DNA of 64,000 bases, taken from positions 588,745 to 652,744 of the forward strand of contig NZ_RXOZ01000011.1 of the NCBI RefSeq assembly GCF_003991205.1, read 5' to 3'. Made by a program: the position numbers and the translations under genes. Every line of letters starts with the position of its first letter. Within the stretch, counting starts at the first letter, position 1. Source of the stretch: Georgenia sp. SYP-B2076 (GTDB lineage Bacteria > Actinomycetota > Actinomycetes > Actinomycetales > Actinomycetaceae). The notes beneath the pieces were generated by a model. That model was not told where the DNA came from, ran no database searches, and was given only the letters and a program-made list of their open reading frames with translations. Below are positions 20,484 through 27,621 of this stretch, in pieces.

Positions 20484-20501
20484 CGCGTGCGGGCGGCACG
20501 G

Positions 20502-23500
20502 TCAGATCGCGAGGTGCCGGGTGCGGCCGTCCCAGTGCGTGTGGACGGCTACGGCGGGAGTGCCCTCGGCGCGCAGGATCTCGTACTCGTCCGCGCACGG
20601 CACCTGCGGGTAGGTCACCCAGAGGTTGTGCGCGGTCATGCAGAAGTCGAGGTCGAGGCGCACGAGCAGGCCCATGAGCTCGCCGATGGTGGGGTCGTCG
20701 ACCTTGGCGAAGGCGTCGTCGAGGAGGACCAGGCGCAGCGCCGTGTCGCCCAGGCCCGACAGGTAGGCGTCCGCCGCGGCAAAGAGGGTGACGTAGGAGA
20801 CGAACCGCGTCTCGCCCTGGGACAGCTTGGCCCGCCCGCGCAGCTCTCGCCGGTCGTGCGGTCCGGGGCCGAGGATGGTCACCCGCATGTGGTGCCACGC
20901 GCGGTAGTCCAGGGCGTTCTTGAGGTGCTGGGCGTACCCGGCGGTCTCGTCCAGCGCGAACTGCTCCTCGACCTGCTCGCGCAGCAGCGTGATGAGCTCG
21001 TCGGTGCGCTCCCCCGGCCGCACGGCCGACGCCGCCTGCACGAGCTCCTTGATGCGGTGGACCCGGCTGCCCTCGGGCGCGTCGAGCACCCAGGCGAGGC
21101 GCACCCCGATGCCGTGGGACGTGCTGATGCTGCGCAGGCTGTCGTTCATGGCGGCCACGAGGTGATCGGACTGCGCCAGGCGCCGGCGCAGCTCCTCGCC
21201 CACGCCGCCGACGACGAAGTTGGTGAACACCTCGTGCTCGCGGCTCGTCAGGGCCTCGCGGGCCCGCTCGACGCGCGCGCGCAGGTCCGCGGCGGCCTCG
21301 GCCACGGGGCTGCGGCCGGTGGTGTCGACGAGCTCGACGAGGTGGAGGTCCTCGGCGACGGTGTGCACGACGTCGAAGCCGCCCTGCAGCTCCGCCTCGA
21401 GCTTCTGCTGGGCGCGCATGAGCACGTTGAGGTCGGCGCTCCCCGCCCCGGCGACGGCGCCGCGCACCGCACCGGCCGCGGCGCGGACGAGCTCGGGCGT
21501 GACCGCCTGGCCGGTGGTGCCGGCCGGCAGCAGGTCGAGGTCGGCGCGGCCGGTGGCGGCGGCGACCACCCCGGGCAGGGCGAGCTGCCGGCGCAGCCGC
21601 CCGAGCACACCGGTGAGATGCTCCCCCGCGGCGGCGGCGGCGGCCTCGGCGGTCTCGGCGTCGCGGCGGGCCACGGCCTCCTTCTCGCCGAGCTGCTGGG
21701 CGCCGCGCCGGGCATCCGCCAGCTCGCGCGCCACGCGCCGGTGCTCCTCCTCCGTCTCCGCGAGCCGGCGGTGGACCTCCCGCGCCTCCTGCCCGAGGCT
21801 CTCGGTCAGCGCCTCGACCTCGGCGGCCTCGCGGTGCCACTGCGCCCACGCCGCGTCGGCGCCCAGCTCGGCCTCGGCGCGCCGCACCCGGTGCCCGTCG
21901 AGCCTGGCGACCTCCTCGGCGTGCCGCGAACGGGCGCGGGCGAGCGTGGTGAGGGCGGACGCGGCGCCGCGGCACGCCCGCTGCGCGGCCTGGGCGGTGT
22001 CGCGCACCTCCTGCAGGCCGTCGGCGTCGAGGGGCAGCTCGTGCCGGTCGCACAGGGTGCGGTGGGTGGCTTCCTGCGCCTTCCAGGCGGCGCGCAGCTC
22101 GGCGGACCGCTCCGCGAGCCGGGCCGCCTCGGCACGGGTGCGGGCCGCCTGCCGGGCGGCCGCGACGGCAAGGGTGCGCGCCTGCGCGAGCGCCGCGGTC
22201 GTCGGCGCCGTCCGGACATGGCCGGTGAGGTCCGCGCGCGCGGCCACGAGCCGGTCGCGGGCCCCGGCCCGGTCGGCGGCGCGCTCGTCGAGGGCGGCCA
22301 GCTCGTCCTCGATGCGGGCGAGGCGGGCGGTGCGGGCCGCCGCCCGGGCCGCGGCGCCGATGTGCCGGGCCGTGTCCGCGGCGCGCCGGCCGCGGAGCGG
22401 CCCGTTGCCCCAGGAGCCGTCCACGTCCACCCACGTGGTGTGGCTGCCGGCGCCGAGGCCGATGCGGGCCAGGACGGCGCTGACGATGGCCGCCGGGACC
22501 GTGGCCGCGGGGTCGGGCACGAGCGCCGCCCGCAGCGGCTGCGGGGCGGGCGAGGACGCGGCGGTGAGCAGGGTCTGCCCGTCCTCGGCGACGAGCGCGC
22601 CGTCGACGCTCAGACCCGCGCCGAGGAGGCCGGCGGACAGCAGCGCCGCCTCGAGCCCGGCCCGGTCGGCCGCGCTGAGGCCGTCGGCGAAGTCCACGGC
22701 CCGCCACAGCGGCTGCGCGCCGCCGGTCAGCGCCCGGGCCCACGGCGCGGCGGGCGGCTCCGGGTCCTTCGCGGCGCGGAGCTCGCGCTGCTCGTCCGTC
22801 AGCGCGCGCCGGCGGGCGCCGTCGGCGTCCGCCTCGGCGTCCAGCGCGGCGCCCGTGCGGGCGAGCCGGTCGCGGGCCGCATCGGCGGCCTCGGCGGCGA
22901 CCCGGTCCAGCTCGTCGAGACGCGGGGCGCCGTCGCGGGCCCCGCTGATGTCGCCACCCAGCACGTCCACGTCGAAGAGGAGCGGGCCGACGGCGGTGGC
23001 CGCCCAGCCCACGTCGCCGAGGAGCTCGGCCGTGCGGGGCTGCGCGGTCCACGCGCGCCAGGCGGCGGCGAGCTCGCGGGCGGCGGCGTCGCGGTCCTGA
23101 CCGCGTTCGCCCGCGACCGTCTCGTCCGCGTCCCGGCGCTCCGCGGCCTCGCCGGCGGCGTCCTCGACGTGGTCGGCGGCCGTGCGGGCGCGGGCCAGCT
23201 CGACCGCGCCCTGGTGGCGGTTCCCGGCCTCGCCGGCCCGGGCCTGCGCGGCGGCGGCGACCTCGCCCGCCCGGGCGGCGGCCTCCTCGAGGTCCGTGGG
23301 CGTGACCATGAGCTGCTGGGCTGAGGGCCGCTCGTGCGCCGTCGGCTCATCCTCGAGGGAGACGCGCACGGGCTCGGCCGGCGCGGGCACCGGGACGAGG
23401 CGGGCCTCCACGGAGGCGGGCAGCGTCGTCGTCGCCAGGTGCGCCCCGCGTAGGCCGGCGCGGGCGTCGTCGAGCACGTGGGCCGCCTCGCGGGCGGCCT

Positions 23501-24710
23501 CGATGGCTTCCGTGCCGAGCTGGTCCGCCGCCGCGACCGCGTCGGCCTCGACCTGACGGGCGGCGCGCGCGGAGTCCAGCTCGCGCCGGGCGAGCTGGGC
23601 GAGCGTGCTGACGTGCCGGTTGCGTCCCGCCAGGTCCTGGCCGGCGCGGTAGGCGTCGGAGTCCTTGAGGCCGGCCGCGGTGGCGGCGAGCTCACCCTCC
23701 CGGGTCTCGAGCCCCTCCACCGTCGCCCGGGCCCCGGCGCTGCGGGCGGCGAGGTCGTCCCGGTCGGCGGCGGCGGCCTGGGCGGCCTCGGTGGCCTCCC
23801 GCCCGGCGTCGGCGGCGCGACCCGCGCGGTCGGCGGTGGCGCCCAGCTCGGTGGCCGCGTACCGGCTGTAGGTGCCGAGGAAGGCGGTGACGTGCTCGAG
23901 GGCCGCGGCGAGGCGGCGCTGGGACTCGCGGGACTCCGACAGGTCGTCGAGCCGGCCGCCCGCGTCGTTGAGGGTCTCCTCGGACAGCGGCGGCAGCGCG
24001 TCGGAGAGGATCCGCGGCAGGTTGCCCTCCTCGATCCGGTTGCCGACGTCGGGCGAGCGCAGCGTGCGGATGAGCTGCAGGAGCCCGTCGTAGCGCTCCC
24101 GCGCCCCGGGACCGGTCAGACCGAAGACGACGGAGCGGACCCGCTCGCGGTGCGTCTCCGGGTTCTCGGTGATGCGGTCGGCGCCGACCAGCTCCGTCAG
24201 CCGCTCGCGGGACATCGGCTGGCGGGCGACGTCGAGCAGCTCGAGCTCGTGGCCCACGCGCAGCGGGGTGGTGAAGTACCAGACCTTCGCCTCGCCCGAG
24301 CTCGCCGACCAGCGCACGAGCGCGCCGAGCGTGAGGTGCTCGCGGCCGGTCTCGCCGTCGCGGACGAGCTCCGCCCACAGGTACCCGAGCCGGTTGCCCT
24401 GCCCCTCCGCGCCGACCTTCATGAGCTCGTCGAGGCGGACCTTGCCGGAGCCGGTGGAGTCCATGCGGCGCCGGTCGGCGTCGAGGACGAACGGCAGGAG
24501 CATCTCGAGGGCGCGGCTCTTGCCCGAGCCGTTGGTGCCGCGCAGCACCATCCGGCCGCCGGAGAACTGGAAGGTCTCGGCCCAGTAGTGCCAGACGTTG
24601 ACGATGCCGGCCCGGTGCAGGCGCCACCGGTGCGGATGGTGCTTGACCTGGTCCTCGGCCGCGCCCGGAGCGCCCTCGGGCGTGGCGGTCGGCGTCGTGG
24701 TGGCACTCAT
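20502..24710 (-). CDS. jetC: Wadjet JetC: SMC-like ATPase, TIGR02680 family
   Basis: 1402 residues. The N-terminal ATPase half has Walker A GTNGSGKS (58-65). Long Ala/Glu/Arg-rich coiled coils with central hinge-like segments follow. The C-terminal half has the signature KLSQGE (about 1295) and Walker B LVLLDDAFAKVDD (about 1328), then a D-loop/H-switch region ending TAHNLW. All ATPase motifs look intact. TIGR02680 proteins belong to a four-gene neighbourhood described in actinobacteria, firmicutes and betaproteobacteria that was later named Wadjet, an SMC complex that recognises and cuts small circular DNA. ATG 24710 overlaps the jetB stop (ATGA). No JetD nuclease gene follows: treZ ends 18 bases away on the other strand. 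Confidence 0.88.
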   Translation of the reverse strand: MSATTTPTATPEGAPGAAEDQVKHHPHRWRLHRAGIVNVWHYWAETFQFSGGRMVLRGTNGSGKSRALEMLLPFVLDADRRRMDSTGSGKVRLDELMKVGAEGQGNRLGYLWAELVRDGETGREHLTLGALVRWSASSGEAKVWYFTTPLRVGHELELLDVARQPMSRERLTELVGADRITENPETHRERVRSVVFGLTGPGARERYDGLLQLIRTLRSPDVGNRIEEGNLPRILSDALPPLSEETLNDAGGRLDDLSESRESQRRLAAALEHVTAFLGTYSRYAATELGATADRAGRAADAGREATEAAQAAAADRDDLAARSAGARATVEGLETREGELAATAAGLKDSDAYRAGQDLAGRNRHVSTLAQLARRELDSARAARQVEADAVAAADQLGTEAIEAAREAAHVLDDARAGLRGAHLATTTLPASVEARLVPVPAPAEPVRVSLEDEPTAHERPSAQQLMVTPTDLEEAAARAGEVAAAAQARAGEAGNRHQGAVELARARTAADHVEDAAGEAAERRDADETVAGERGQDRDAAARELAAAWRAWTAQPRTAELLGDVGWAATAVGPLLFDVDVLGGDISGARDGAPRLDELDRVAAEAADAARDRLARTGAALDAEADADGARRRALTDEQRELRAAKDPEPPAAPWARALTGGAQPLWRAVDFADGLSAADRAGLEAALLSAGLLGAGLSVDGALVAEDGQTLLTAASSPAPQPLRAALVPDPAATVPAAIVSAVLARIGLGAGSHTTWVDVDGSWGNGPLRGRRAADTARHIGAAARAAARTARLARIEDELAALDERAADRAGARDRLVAARADLTGHVRTAPTTAALAQARTLAVAAARQAARTRAEAARLAERSAELRAAWKAQEATHRTLCDRHELPLDADGLQEVRDTAQAAQRACRGAASALTTLARARSRHAEEVARLDGHRVRRAEAELGADAAWAQWHREAAEVEALTESLGQEAREVHRRLAETEEEHRRVARELADARRGAQQLGEKEAVARRDAETAEAAAAAAGEHLTGVLGRLRRQLALPGVVAAATGRADLDLLPAGTTGQAVTPELVRAAAGAVRGAVAGAGSADLNVLMRAQQKLEAELQGGFDVVHTVAEDLHLVELVDTTGRSPVAEAAADLRARVERAREALTSREHEVFTNFVVGGVGEELRRRLAQSDHLVAAMNDSLRSISTSHGIGVRLAWVLDAPEGSRVHRIKELVQAASAVRPGERTDELITLLREQVEEQFALDETAGYAQHLKNALDYRAWHHMRVTILGPGPHDRRELRGRAKLSQGETRFVSYVTLFAAADAYLSGLGDTALRLVLLDDAFAKVDDPTIGELMGLLVRLDLDFCMTAHNLWVTYPQVPCADEYEILRAEGTPAVAVHTHWDGRTRHLAI

Positions 24711-25966
24711 GCGTCCTCCTGGAACGGGAACAGGCTCTGCTGCCCCGGGAGCACGGGCACGTCGGTCTCGCCCGCCACGGGTGGGGCGGGCGAGCGGCGG
24801 GCCACGCGCTGGGGCTCGGGCTGGTAGCGGGCGCAGGCGGGGTGGAGCACCAGGCCGGCGGGTGTGCGGCGCGCCAGGCTGAGGTCCTCCAGCCGGGCGA
24901 CGACCTCGGCCTGGAGGTACTCGGGATCGCTGGCGAACGCCTCGGCGAAGGTCGCGCCGTACTGCTCGACCAGCAGCTGCACGGCGTCGGAGACCGCCGC
25001 CCAGGGGGCGAGCAGGCCCGGCACGACCGTCCCGTCGACCTCGGCGGCGGCCCCGGGGCCGCCGTCGAGATCGTCGACGAGGGCGTTGACCAGGAGCAGG
25101 GCGACATGCGCGACGGTCCCCTGGCCGGGGAACGCGACGTCGGTGAGCTCGCCGTCGACGTCGTAGGCCAGGGCGCCCTCCTGGCGGACCTCCAGGGTCA
25201 GGCCGAAGCTCTCGGCCAGGGTGCGGCTGAGCTCCGCCCGCTCGCGGGACAGGACGTGCTGCTCGGCGTCCGTGAGGTCCTCGCGGCGCACGAGCGGGTT
25301 CTCCACGAGCTTGCGGCGCAGCGTGCGGCGGGGCTGCTCGGCGGGCGTGTCGCCGGTGCCGCGCACCAGGAGCTCCTCCGCGGTGGCGACCTCGCGCAGC
25401 GGCCGGGCGAGCACGTGGGTGAGCAGGGTCCGGTTGACGTCCAGCAGGGCCTCCTCCTGGCGGTCGCCCCAGGCGGTGACGGAACCGTCCGTCTCGGTGA
25501 GCACGCCCCAGTCGAGGAGCAGCGCGATGGCCTGCACGAGGTGACGCCGGTCGGAGAGCGAGTCGTCCATAGTGATGCCGGCGCCCGCGGCGTCGGCGCG
25601 GACCTGTCCGACCAGCGAGCCCAGGAGCACCTGGTCACCGCTGGTGGTCTCCAGCAGGCCCGCGCACACCAGCGCGAGGTAGGCGTAGGTGCGCGGCGCG
25701 AACGGCTGCCCCCCGCGGCGCTGGGCCGGCCGCGGCGGGGCGTCGGCGCTCGGGGCGTCCTTGACGAGCCGGGCGAAGGAGGCCTCGACCACCAGCGGGT
25801 AGCCGAGCACGGCGGGGAACATCTTCTTCAGCGCGGCGGCGTGCCGGCGGACGAGCGCGAGCTCCTCGCCGCGCCGGGCGCGGGTGAGGACCGGGTGGGA
25901 CAGCAGCGCCCGGGCGGCCTCCCGCCGCTCGGCCGCGTCGTGCTCGGCGGTGCCGTGGGGGGTCAC
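24707..25966 (-). CDS. jetB: Wadjet JetB: DUF2398 (TIGR02678) kite-like subunit
   Basis: 419 residues. The family pattern is seen in RREAARALLSHPVLT near the N-terminus, ALKKMFPAVLGYPLVVE, PRTYAYLALVCAGLLET and DRRHLVQAIALLLDWGVL, all helical or winged-helix elements of the kite-type subunit that joins kleisin and SMC. A C-terminal tail ends LPGQQSLFPFQED. GTG 25966 overlaps the jetA stop (GTGA) and its own stop overlaps jetC, so the three subunits are made in coupled fashion. Confidence 0.82.
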   Translation of the reverse strand: MTPHGTAEHDAAERREAARALLSHPVLTRARRGEELALVRRHAAALKKMFPAVLGYPLVVEASFARLVKDAPSADAPPRPAQRRGGQPFAPRTYAYLALVCAGLLETTSGDQVLLGSLVGQVRADAAGAGITMDDSLSDRRHLVQAIALLLDWGVLTETDGSVTAWGDRQEEALLDVNRTLLTHVLARPLREVATAEELLVRGTGDTPAEQPRRTLRRKLVENPLVRREDLTDAEQHVLSRERAELSRTLAESFGLTLEVRQEGALAYDVDGELTDVAFPGQGTVAHVALLLVNALVDDLDGGPGAAAEVDGTVVPGLLAPWAAVSDAVQLLVEQYGATFAEAFASDPEYLQAEVVARLEDLSLARRTPAGLVLHPACARYQPEPQRVARRSPAPPVAGETDVPVLPGQQSLFPFQEDA

Positions 25967-27621
25967 GCGCGCACCTCCTCGAGCTCGGGGTCGAGCAGGT
26001 GCTCGGGCTCGAGCAGGTGCTCGGGCTCGAGCAGGCGCTCGCGCTCGACCTCGGGTCCGAGCTCGGCCGCGGACCGCGGCCCGGTCCCGGGCGCGCGCCC
26101 AGGCGCCTCGGCACCGGCCGCGGTCACCTCGAGGACGAGCCCGTGGACCGTGAGGTCGCCGTCGGGGGTGCGCAGCACGGTGGTCGCGGCCTGGTCCGGC
26201 GTGGCGGTGAGGGTGAGCCCCAGGTCGGTGTCCGTGGCGCGCGCCGCCGCCTCCAGCTGGGGGTGCACCGCGAGCAGCCGGGTGAGCTGCCCGAGCAGCA
26301 GGGTCAGCGCGGCCGGGCTCACCGCGGCGCCGTCGAGCCGGCCCGCGGCGACGAGCTCAGCCACCGCGGCCGCGCGGGCGTCGGCCTCGTCCTGGGCCTC
26401 GGCCAGCAGCCGCACCCGGTCCAGGCCGGGGTCGGGCACCGAGGCGGTGCGCCCCCGGGCGCCGCGGTCGCCGCGTTCGCGCAGGCTCAGCGGCACCTCC
26501 ACGGGCGTCGCCGCCCACCAGGAGGTCGTGGCGCCGTCGCGGGGGTCGGGCTCCTCGGGGCCGCCGAGGAGGTGGCGGGCGGGGTAGGCGCCGAACGCGG
26601 CGGCATACAGCCGGTGCGCCTCGTCGGCGCCCGCGGTGTCAAACCAGCCGGCGAGCCTGAGCAGGTCCGCGCGCCGGCTCACCCCGGTGCCCGCGGACGC
26701 GAGCATCCGCTTGGTGTTGGCCAGGAGCTGACCGAGGGCCTGGTCCGCGGCCATCCGCAGCGTCTCCGGGCCGGAGCGGGCATCAGCGCCGGTGTACCAG
26801 CCGCGCACCTGCTCCCAGTCCTCACGGGTGCGCCCGGGCAGCCGCTCGGTGCGCGCGTCGGCCGAGGCGAGCGTGGGCAGCGCAGAGAGCGCCGCGAGCA
26901 GGTCGTCGAGCACCGGCTCGAGCGCCGCGAAGCGGCGGGCGACGACGGGGGCGTGGCGGGCGACGTCGGCGGTGAGCAGGTCGATGTAGTCCAGCAGCAG
27001 CCGCTTGAACTGCTGGTACTCCTCGCCGGCGAGGTCGTAGCGGGTGAGCACGGTGTTCACGTACGCGTAGAAGTCGCGGACGCTGTCGGAGAACAGCCGC
27101 TGGTTGTTGAACACCGTCGTCACGTCGCCCGAGAGCGCGTCGGCGTCCACGGGCCGGGAGCCGGTGGCCGCCTGCATGCGGGCGACGATGCGGTCGAGGG
27201 TCTCGGCGGTGGCGCCGAGCAGCTCGCGCGCGACCTCCCGGGCGCCCTCCCCGGCGGCGAGGACCGCCTCGGCCTCCCGGTGCACCCGGACGCCGAGCTT
27301 GGATGCCTGGTAGCGGGCGCGGGAGCGGACGTAGTCCTGGACGGTGGCCACCCGGGCGTCGCGGATGCCGCGCACGAGGTTGCCCCACCTCTCGAGCTGC
27401 TCGCACCGGGTGGTGACCTCGTCGACGGAGAGGGCGACGCCGCGCTCGGCCAGCCCGTCGCTCACCTCGGAGGCGGACAGGTCGGCCAGCAGCGTCGAGG
27501 TGAACAGCGTCATGATGGCGCGGTAGTCCCCCGCCAGGTCTGCCGTGAGGTAGCGGAACAGGTCCAGCCGTGCGGGCGCCTGCCGGGCAGGGTCGTCGTG
27601 AGGACCCTCGACATCGTTCAC
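25963..27621 (-). CDS. jetA: Wadjet JetA: DUF2397 (TIGR02677) kleisin-like subunit
   Basis: 552 residues from GTG 27621. The family start LDLFRYLTADLAGDYRAIMTLF is clear, followed by winged-helix-like segments, a long helical middle (EYQQFKRLLLDYIDLL) and a C-terminal region with RLAGWFDTAGADEAHRLYAAAFG. It is thought to act as the kleisin closing the JetC ring. It is first in the jetABC unit and divergent from an M15 peptidase. The last 25 residues contain an 18-base tandem repeat (LLEPEH units), probably a disordered tail. Confidence 0.82.
   Translation of the reverse strand: MNDVEGPHDDPARQAPARLDLFRYLTADLAGDYRAIMTLFTSTLLADLSASEVSDGLAERGVALSVDEVTTRCEQLERWGNLVRGIRDARVATVQDYVRSRARYQASKLGVRVHREAEAVLAAGEGAREVARELLGATAETLDRIVARMQAATGSRPVDADALSGDVTTVFNNQRLFSDSVRDFYAYVNTVLTRYDLAGEEYQQFKRLLLDYIDLLTADVARHAPVVARRFAALEPVLDDLLAALSALPTLASADARTERLPGRTREDWEQVRGWYTGADARSGPETLRMAADQALGQLLANTKRMLASAGTGVSRRADLLRLAGWFDTAGADEAHRLYAAAFGAYPARHLLGGPEEPDPRDGATTSWWAATPVEVPLSLRERGDRGARGRTASVPDPGLDRVRLLAEAQDEADARAAAVAELVAAGRLDGAAVSPAALTLLLGQLTRLLAVHPQLEAAARATDTDLGLTLTATPDQAATTVLRTPDGDLTVHGLVLEVTAAGAEAPGRAPGTGPRSAAELGPEVERERLLEPEHLLEPEHLLDPELEEVRA
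25991..26044 (-). repeat. 18-base tandem repeat in the jetA 3' end
   Basis: Three head-to-tail 18-base units encode LLEPEH-type repeats in the JetA tail. The first two are identical and the third differs at two positions. Copy number could vary by slippage without shifting the frame. Confidence 0.8.

What the first reader, a model, noticed from the sequence alone, without database searches (positions are those of the whole stretch)
20502..27621. Wadjet-type jetABC operon without the JetD nuclease
DUF2397, DUF2398 and a TIGR02680 SMC-like ATPase are coupled by ATGA/GTGA overlaps and have intact Walker A, signature and Walker B motifs. The fourth partner, DUF2399 (JetD, the toprim-like nuclease that cuts plasmid DNA), is missing: the downstream side has 18 bases and then treZ on the other strand, and the upstream side has an M15 peptidase. 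A clean loss with the other three genes kept suggests either JetD supplied from elsewhere, a different nuclease, or an MksBEF-like complex that has turned to chromosome organisation.
Basis: partly seen in the sequence, partly recalled or inferred. Interest (0 to 1): 0.72.

Follow-up and report, generated by a model that had tools for sequence, protein, structure and literature searches.

The report
Plasmid-defence motor that lost its scissors
A soil bacterium keeps three working parts of a plasmid-cutting defence machine but lacks the cutting part, and the same gap turns up repeatedly in related bacteria, which suggests the remaining DNA-pulling motor has a job of its own.

Summary
Observation confirmed. 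Window 20502-27621 (-) encodes JetA, JetB and JetC of a type II Wadjet in a Georgenia genome, with no JetD. No DUF2399, DUF3323 or type I JetD_C match passed threshold in this assembly. Four of nine Georgenia genomes carry the same jetABC cassette beside treZ, none with jetD there, so it is not an assembly error. Its dN/dS is mostly below that of its neighbours, so it is not decaying.

It is not unique. Of 100 DUF2397 loci taken from 394 genomes of the class, 69 have JetD within 16 kb, 24 (this one included) have complete JetABC without JetD nearby, 7 are incomplete. JetD state changes at least six times on the JetABC tree; one JetD-less clade is rejected.

Most likely: a functional nuclease-free type II SMC motor, by analogy with MksBEF, thought to be a Wadjet that lost JetD. 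Lead: the JetB tail has QQSLF, a sliding-clamp-binding consensus that recurs in JetB and JetC tails. Its role (chromosome or replication, or restraining plasmids without cutting) is not shown.

The parts
25963..27621 (-). jetA (DUF2397, kleisin-like), 552 aa
   Evidence: Pfam PF09660 E 8e-113, TIGR02677, PADLOC JetA2; profile of 37 JetA matches PDB 9qe0 JetA E 5e-61; model has 9qe0_E as top hit but a poor global fit (TM 0.26)
24707..25966 (-). jetB (DUF2398, KITE-like), 419 aa
   Evidence: Pfam PF09661 E 5e-89, TIGR02678, PADLOC JetB2; model matches 9qe0_D, N. vireti Wadjet-II JetB, E 4.5e-16, TM 0.69/0.75
20502..24710 (-). jetC (TIGR02680 SMC ATPase), 1402 aa
   Evidence: TIGR02680 E 3e-210, PADLOC JetC2 1082 bits; PDB 9qe0 JetC E 4e-53
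24516..24539 (-). Walker A of JetC, GTNGSGKS
   Evidence: read from sequence; its Gly and Lys positions conserved in 26 of 26 JetD-less rows
20811..20825 (-). ABC signature of JetC, LSQGE
20709..20732 (-). Walker B of JetC, LVLLDDAF (Asp at the usual Glu)
24728..24742 (-). candidate sliding-clamp-binding motif QQSLF in the JetB C-terminal tail (residues 409-413)
   Evidence: motif enrichment; tail has low confidence in the model; consensus QL[S/D]LF or QxxLF from PMC12309361 passages
20484..20501 (.). jetC-treZ junction, 18 bp, where jetD would lie
   Evidence: 40, 39 and 48 bp in G004, G003 and G002 by the ORF offsets

Best explanation
This is a functional type II Wadjet core, the JetABC SMC motor, kept by selection without the JetD nuclease. 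Shown: three intact co-linear genes, conserved ATPase motifs, purifying selection, the same position beside treZ in four Georgenia genomes, and no JetD in three of these genomes. Inferred: JetA, JetB and JetC assemble into a dimeric ATP-driven loop extruder like the solved Wadjet-II JetABC, but cannot cut; and JetD was lost, not never present. Committed guess on role: like MksBEF it acts on DNA without cutting, as an accessory organiser next to SMC-ScpAB, possibly recruited to replicating DNA through the QQSLF tail of JetB.
For: Families and folds. Same cassette beside treZ in G000, G002, G003 and G004 without jetD. dN/dS of jetA, jetB and jetC 0.15-0.26, against 0.24-0.38 for five neighbour genes (one treZ value, 0.24, overlaps). 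No DUF2399 or DUF3323 in G000, G002, G003. Complete JetABC without JetD nearby recurs: 24 of 100 loci in the class sample; the JetD label needs at least six changes on the tree and a single JetD-less clade is rejected (AU p 2e-85). ATPase positions conserved in 26 of 26 JetD-less rows. Precedent in print: P. [quoted passage not shown] ScpA present in 9 of 9 Georgenia, so JetABC would be an extra complex. Clamp-type motif enriched in JetB tails.
Against: No functional data. The cassette is absent from 5 of 9 Georgenia, so it is dispensable in the genus, which fits a defence or accessory role as well as an organiser. Across clades, median dN/dS of JetA and JetC is a little higher in JetD-less than in JetD-bearing pairs (0.18 against 0.135, and 0.35 against 0.305; JetB 0.20 against 0.21), so mild relaxation is not excluded. 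The closest JetD-bearing relatives L128 and L129 lack the clamp-type motif, as do many others, and so do three of four named plasmid copies looked at. An unlinked nuclease outside the searched families cannot be excluded.
Confidence: 0.6

Rival explanations
1. It is still plasmid immunity but without cutting: JetABC fully extrudes small circles and holds or silences them, as Smc5/6 restricts extrachromosomal DNA (recalled), so the nuclease is dispensable.
For: The relatives are anti-plasmid systems and JetABC does the circle sensing (PMC10586767 passages). Patchy presence in 4 of 9 Georgenia. In the f36 group the JetD-less cassette lies beside a DruE-like defence gene.
Against: In the published test all four subunits were needed to suppress transformation in B. 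subtilis (PMC10586767 passage). In Georgenia the neighbours that I annotated are trehalose or glycogen-type enzymes, an M15 peptidase and a FecCD-type transporter, with no defence gene among them.
Confidence: 0.22
2. JetABC recruits an unlinked, unrelated host nuclease in place of JetD.
For: JetABC alone has no known nuclease; 8 of the 24 class-sample JetD-less loci sit in genomes with a JetD elsewhere.
Against: 16 of the 24, this one included, have no DUF2399 match in the genome at E 0.001. No shared nuclease-like gene beside jetC or jetA.
Confidence: 0.12
3. Recently broken Wadjet on its way out.
For: JetD is required for plasmid restriction; G076 in the same order shows an incomplete copy, with jetC not whole and no jetD in the genome. 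Slightly higher median dN/dS in JetD-less pairs of other clades.
Against: jetA, jetB and jetC are open in this genome, G003 and G004, and in two contig pieces of G002; dN/dS in Georgenia is mostly below the neighbours, and JetD-less and JetD-bearing ranges overlap widely (0.08-0.55 and 0.09-0.41).
Confidence: 0.05
4. Assembly or annotation error hiding jetD.
For: Draft genome of 37 contigs.
Against: Junction inside a 680 kb contig; same layout in three other assemblies; no jetD on any contig.
Confidence: 0.01

Closest known systems
Wadjet type II (JetABCD), Neobacillus vireti nvJET, PDB 9qe0/9qe1
   Same: JetA, JetB and JetC families, JetB fold
   Different: nvJET has JetD and cuts circular DNA (PMC12647877 passages); here there is no JetD in the genome
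MksBEF of Pseudomonas aeruginosa
   Same: Wadjet-like SMC complex without its nuclease; [quoted passage not shown]
   Different: Not the same protein families as this type II core (recalled; not compared here); its chromosome role has been tested, here it has not
EptABCD of M. smegmatis / MksBEFG of C. glutamicum
   Same: Actinobacterial Wadjet systems
   Different: Four genes including the nuclease (PMC10586767 and PMC10123090 passages)
JetA-JetB-JetC 'Wadjet' listed for Paenarthrobacter lasiusi (PMC11719660, Table 6)
   Same: A three-gene Wadjet call in an actinobacterium
   Different: No comment on the missing JetD in the passages seen; sequence not examined here

Membership tests
Wadjet type II | JetA DUF2397, JetB DUF2398, JetC TIGR02680 in one operon | tested here: met
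Wadjet type II | JetD (DUF3323-DUF2399, toprim nuclease) in the operon | tested here: not met
Wadjet type II | SMC ATPase with Walker A, signature, Walker B | tested here: met
   Walker B Asp-Asp instead of Asp-Glu, shared with some JetD-bearing relatives
Wadjet type II | Subunits like solved Wadjet-II JetABC | tested here: met
   JetB by fold; JetA and JetC by sequence; JetA model has a poor global fit; JetC was not modelled
Wadjet type II | Cuts small circular DNA | not testable with these tools
   -
MksBEF-type nuclease-free condensin | SMC, kleisin and KITE without nuclease, retained under selection | tested here: met
MksBEF-type nuclease-free condensin | Same protein families as MksB, MksE, MksF | not tested
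MksBEF-type nuclease-free condensin | Contributes to chromosome organisation | not testable with these tools
Sliding-clamp client | QL[S/D]LF or QxxLF motif in a flexible tail | tested here: met
   JetB 409-413 QQSLF, tail blocks pLDDT 40-65
Sliding-clamp client | Binds DnaN | not testable with these tools
   -

The most novel reading that the evidence does not exclude
Type II Wadjet complexes of actinobacteria are replication-clamp-coupled SMC motors, and several lineages, Georgenia among them, have dropped the nuclease and turned the clamp-tethered motor into a nuclease-free complex acting on newly replicated DNA.
Probability: 0.2. Interest if true: 0.85.

Novelty: new variant of a known kind. 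Interest (0 to 1): 0.6.

Why it matters
It has been proposed that defence SMCs and chromosome-organising SMCs turned into one another, with MksBEF arising by loss of JetD (PMC10586767 passages). Repeated, selectively maintained JetD-less forms of a second Wadjet type give natural replicates of that step, with JetD-bearing sisters for comparison. Defence-system callers that accept three-gene Wadjets may also be scoring plasmid immunity where no cutting is possible. The clamp-type tail motif would, if it binds DnaN, suggest how these motors find DNA.

Tried and rejected
JetD in trans: searched with PF09664, PF11796 and PF09983; no match above threshold in this genome. A fourth partner in place of JetD: ORFs within 4 kb downstream of jetC (27 loci) and 3.6 kb upstream of jetA (29 loci) were clustered. 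Clusters are mostly clade-specific. The cross-clade links that I saw are one downstream pair (L118/L122, which reads like a short-chain dehydrogenase) and an upstream group that joins the Georgenia transporter region with an f35 protein that reads like an ABC-F ATPase, in opposite orientations; neither is nuclease-like (my reading, not scanned, except the Georgenia transporter). L121 has only 376 bp of contig after jetC.

The reading that JetD absence is a Georgenia oddity was dropped after the class survey. The order survey alone would have supported rarity: 26 of 31 genomes with DUF2397 above cut-off also have DUF2399, the other five being this one, one with incomplete jetC (G076), two cut by contig ends (G170, G212) and one with fragments (G313).

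JetD-interface erosion: columns conserved in JetD-bearing rows but changed in at least two JetD-less clades are 6 of 33 (JetA), 13 of 38 (JetB) and 17 of 89 (JetC). Most deviate in the related f22/f35/f36 clades and some are alignment gaps, so this is not evidence of a lost interface. A JetB N-terminal motif lost with JetD was looked for by eye and none was seen (output partly cut).

Direction of change: L119 (no JetD) and L134 (JetD) are collinear on both sides of the jetD place, but they sit in a mostly JetD-less clade, so a regain in L134 is as possible as a loss in L119.

Limits: the 100 class loci are those that I took from the list (split matches merged); 35 rows of weak or partial matches, by my count, were left out, the best of them 163.5 bits over part of the profile. 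61 of 85 loci entered the tree (JetA, B and C each over 80% of the profile in one frame); 19 incomplete and 5 without jet genes were left out. The 30 other class loci without JetD nearby were all fetched, but only 10 of the 69 with JetD (three more were held from the order survey, and L146-L148 came later and are not in the tree), so proportions in the tree are no census. The tree is a quick LG+G4 search, with warnings of long branches meeting; the one-clade test dropped four long rows. treY and treZ ORFs were taken mechanically and may run past the true start, which would inflate their dN/dS.
Full report
What is there. Pfam, NCBIfam and PADLOC agree on a type II Wadjet core. The genes overlap by GTGA and ATGA, and jetC ends 18 bp from the stop of treZ. 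Upstream and divergent is an M15 peptidase, then an ABC transporter of the FecCD/periplasmic-binding type. Sequence search against solved structures gives as the only strong match Neobacillus vireti Wadjet-II JetABC, 9qe0/9qe1 (title). An AlphaFold model of JetB (mean pLDDT 85) matches 9qe0 JetB at E 4.5e-16; the JetA model also has 9qe0 as top hit but superposes poorly overall. JetC was not modelled.

No JetD. DUF2399 (PF09664) has no match above cut-off in the whole own assembly, nor DUF3323 or the type I JetD C-terminal domain. In the genus, four of nine genomes carry DUF2399 and DUF3323; each of these copies is in a separate complete Wadjet.

The cassette in relatives. jetABC beside treZ is found in G000, G002, G003 and G004 (4 of 9), at 90-93% identity for JetA, 82-86% for JetB and 78-80% for JetC over the matched parts. 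In G002 jetC is cut by a contig end, but the other half lies on another contig directly beside treZ, again without jetD (L140). In the other five genomes the treZ region holds no jet gene; in G005 the transporter ATPase gene lies about 10 bp from the treZ match. The cassette therefore comes and goes as three genes.

Not decaying. Nei-Gojobori dN/dS between the window and its orthologues is 0.15-0.25 for jetA, 0.22-0.24 for jetB and 0.21-0.26 for jetC, against 0.24-0.32 for treZ, 0.33-0.38 for treY and 0.27-0.38 for three other neighbours. Walker A, signature, Walker B Asp and D-loop positions are conserved in 26 of 26 JetD-less rows. In other clades, dN/dS of JetD-less pairs (11 pairs, Georgenia included) ranges 0.08-0.55 and of JetD-bearing pairs (6 pairs) 0.09-0.41; medians are slightly higher without JetD for JetA (0.18 against 0.135) and JetC (0.35 against 0.305), not for JetB (0.20 against 0.21).

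How common. In an even draw of 396 genomes of the order, 31 have DUF2397 above cut-off and 26 of these also have DUF2399. The other five are this genome, one with incomplete jetC (G076), two cut by contig ends and one with fragments only. From 394 genomes of the class I took 100 DUF2397 loci: 69 have DUF2399 within 16 kb, 12 have it only elsewhere in the genome, and 19 have none. Reading the 31 loci without it nearby: 24 have JetA, JetB and JetC each over 80% complete, this one included; 16 of these are in genomes with no DUF2399 match and 8 in genomes with it elsewhere; the other 7 are contig-end or partial loci, one of them with the start of a JetD. No nuclease-like gene near these loci is shared across the clades (details under what was tried).

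Tree. On 61 complete loci (26 JetD-less, 35 with JetD) the JetD label needs at least six changes. If JetD was ancestral, the cheapest account is four separate losses (Georgenia, two other isolated groups, and one large mostly JetD-less clade) with two regains; without regains there are more losses. After dropping four long rows the label needs seven changes, and one single JetD-less clade is rejected, AU p 2e-85. The three complete Georgenia copies join the JetD-bearing L128 and L129 with full SH-aLRT support. Counts of changes cannot by themselves tell loss from gain; loss is the natural reading because the Wadjets tested in print carry JetD.

Mechanism. In published work JetABC is the sensor and motor and JetD the nuclease; all four were needed for plasmid suppression in B. 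subtilis (PMC10586767 passages). So this operon should extrude DNA but not cut it. The same review says that P. [quoted passage not shown] ScpA is present in 9 of 9 Georgenia, so JetABC would be an additional complex. This makes a nuclease-free accessory SMC the best reading; the exact role is inference.

Clamp-type motif. The JetB tail of the window ends ...GQQSLFPFQEDA. QxxLF is the general sliding-clamp-binding consensus (PMC12309361 passages; PMC9690074 passages). In tails past the profile end, QxxLF or QxxMF occurs in 12 of 61 JetB (mean 0.12, maximum 2 in 1000 shuffles) and 3 of 61 JetC (mean 0.11, maximum 2), but in 0 of 61 JetA and 0 of 33 JetD tails; LF or MF occurs in 23 of 61 JetB tails (mean 2.8, maximum 8) and in 10 of 61 JetC tails (mean 4.8, maximum 11, so not unusual). 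Counting JetB tails and the last 12 residues of JetC, LF or MF is present in 21 of 35 JetD-bearing and 11 of 26 JetD-less loci. Rows are related, so these are not independent. Against it: L128, L129 and many others lack it, and of four named plasmid copies, all with JetD annotated, three lack it and one has LF without the Gln. In three JetD-less f35 loci (L112, L113, L118) JetB has QLPLGL, which I recall as fitting a hexapeptide form of the motif. Binding is untested.

Literature. Searches for Wadjet with wording on a missing JetD, for the DUF/TIGR names, and for Wadjet with sliding clamp or DnaN found no paper on either point; one search listed one paper, on an archaeal virus-host system, that by its title and abstract is not about this. 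The library is open-access only. One table lists a JetA-JetB-JetC Wadjet in Paenarthrobacter lasiusi, without comment on the missing JetD in the passages seen (PMC11719660). I saw passages only of PMC10586767, PMC10123090, PMC11719660, PMC12287153, PMC12647877, PMC9690074 and PMC12309361.

Verdict. It is a recurrent variant of a known system, with a testable recruitment lead.

Noticed in passing
L146, L147, L148 (G648, G569, G632): Some class-sample operons have the order jetC-jetA-jetB-jetD instead of jetA-jetB-jetC-jetD.
   Followed up: partly
L100:14062-17403 and the matching stretches of L102, L120, L121: A DruE-like helicase (MZB and Helicase_C domains, PADLOC DruE3 E 1e-90; only the L100 copy was scanned, the others match it) lies directly upstream of JetD-less jetABC in all four f36 loci read.
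   Followed up: partly
window 20709-20732 (-): JetC Walker B has Asp at the usual catalytic Glu (LDDAF), shared by 11 of 59 JetC rows with a letter there, both with and without JetD.
   Followed up: partly
L057 (G076:C21:1-19900): A type II Wadjet that looks degraded: JetA and JetB complete, jetC incomplete in one frame, no JetD match in the genome.
   Followed up: no
G004 (G. ruanii) C31 and C35: One genome carries both a complete JetABCD (L013) and the JetD-less cassette (L016), from distant branches of the JetABC tree.
   Followed up: no
several f35 genomes, e.g. G593:C33:131899-132426: Extra short DUF2397 matches covering only about profile 300-482, apparently a separate protein family with the JetA C-terminal part.
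   Followed up: no
L134:10965-12191 against L119:11510-12348: Closely related jetABC loci with collinear flanks differ by jetD against a 0.84 kb stretch without JetD similarity, a natural pair for loss or gain of the nuclease.
   Followed up: partly
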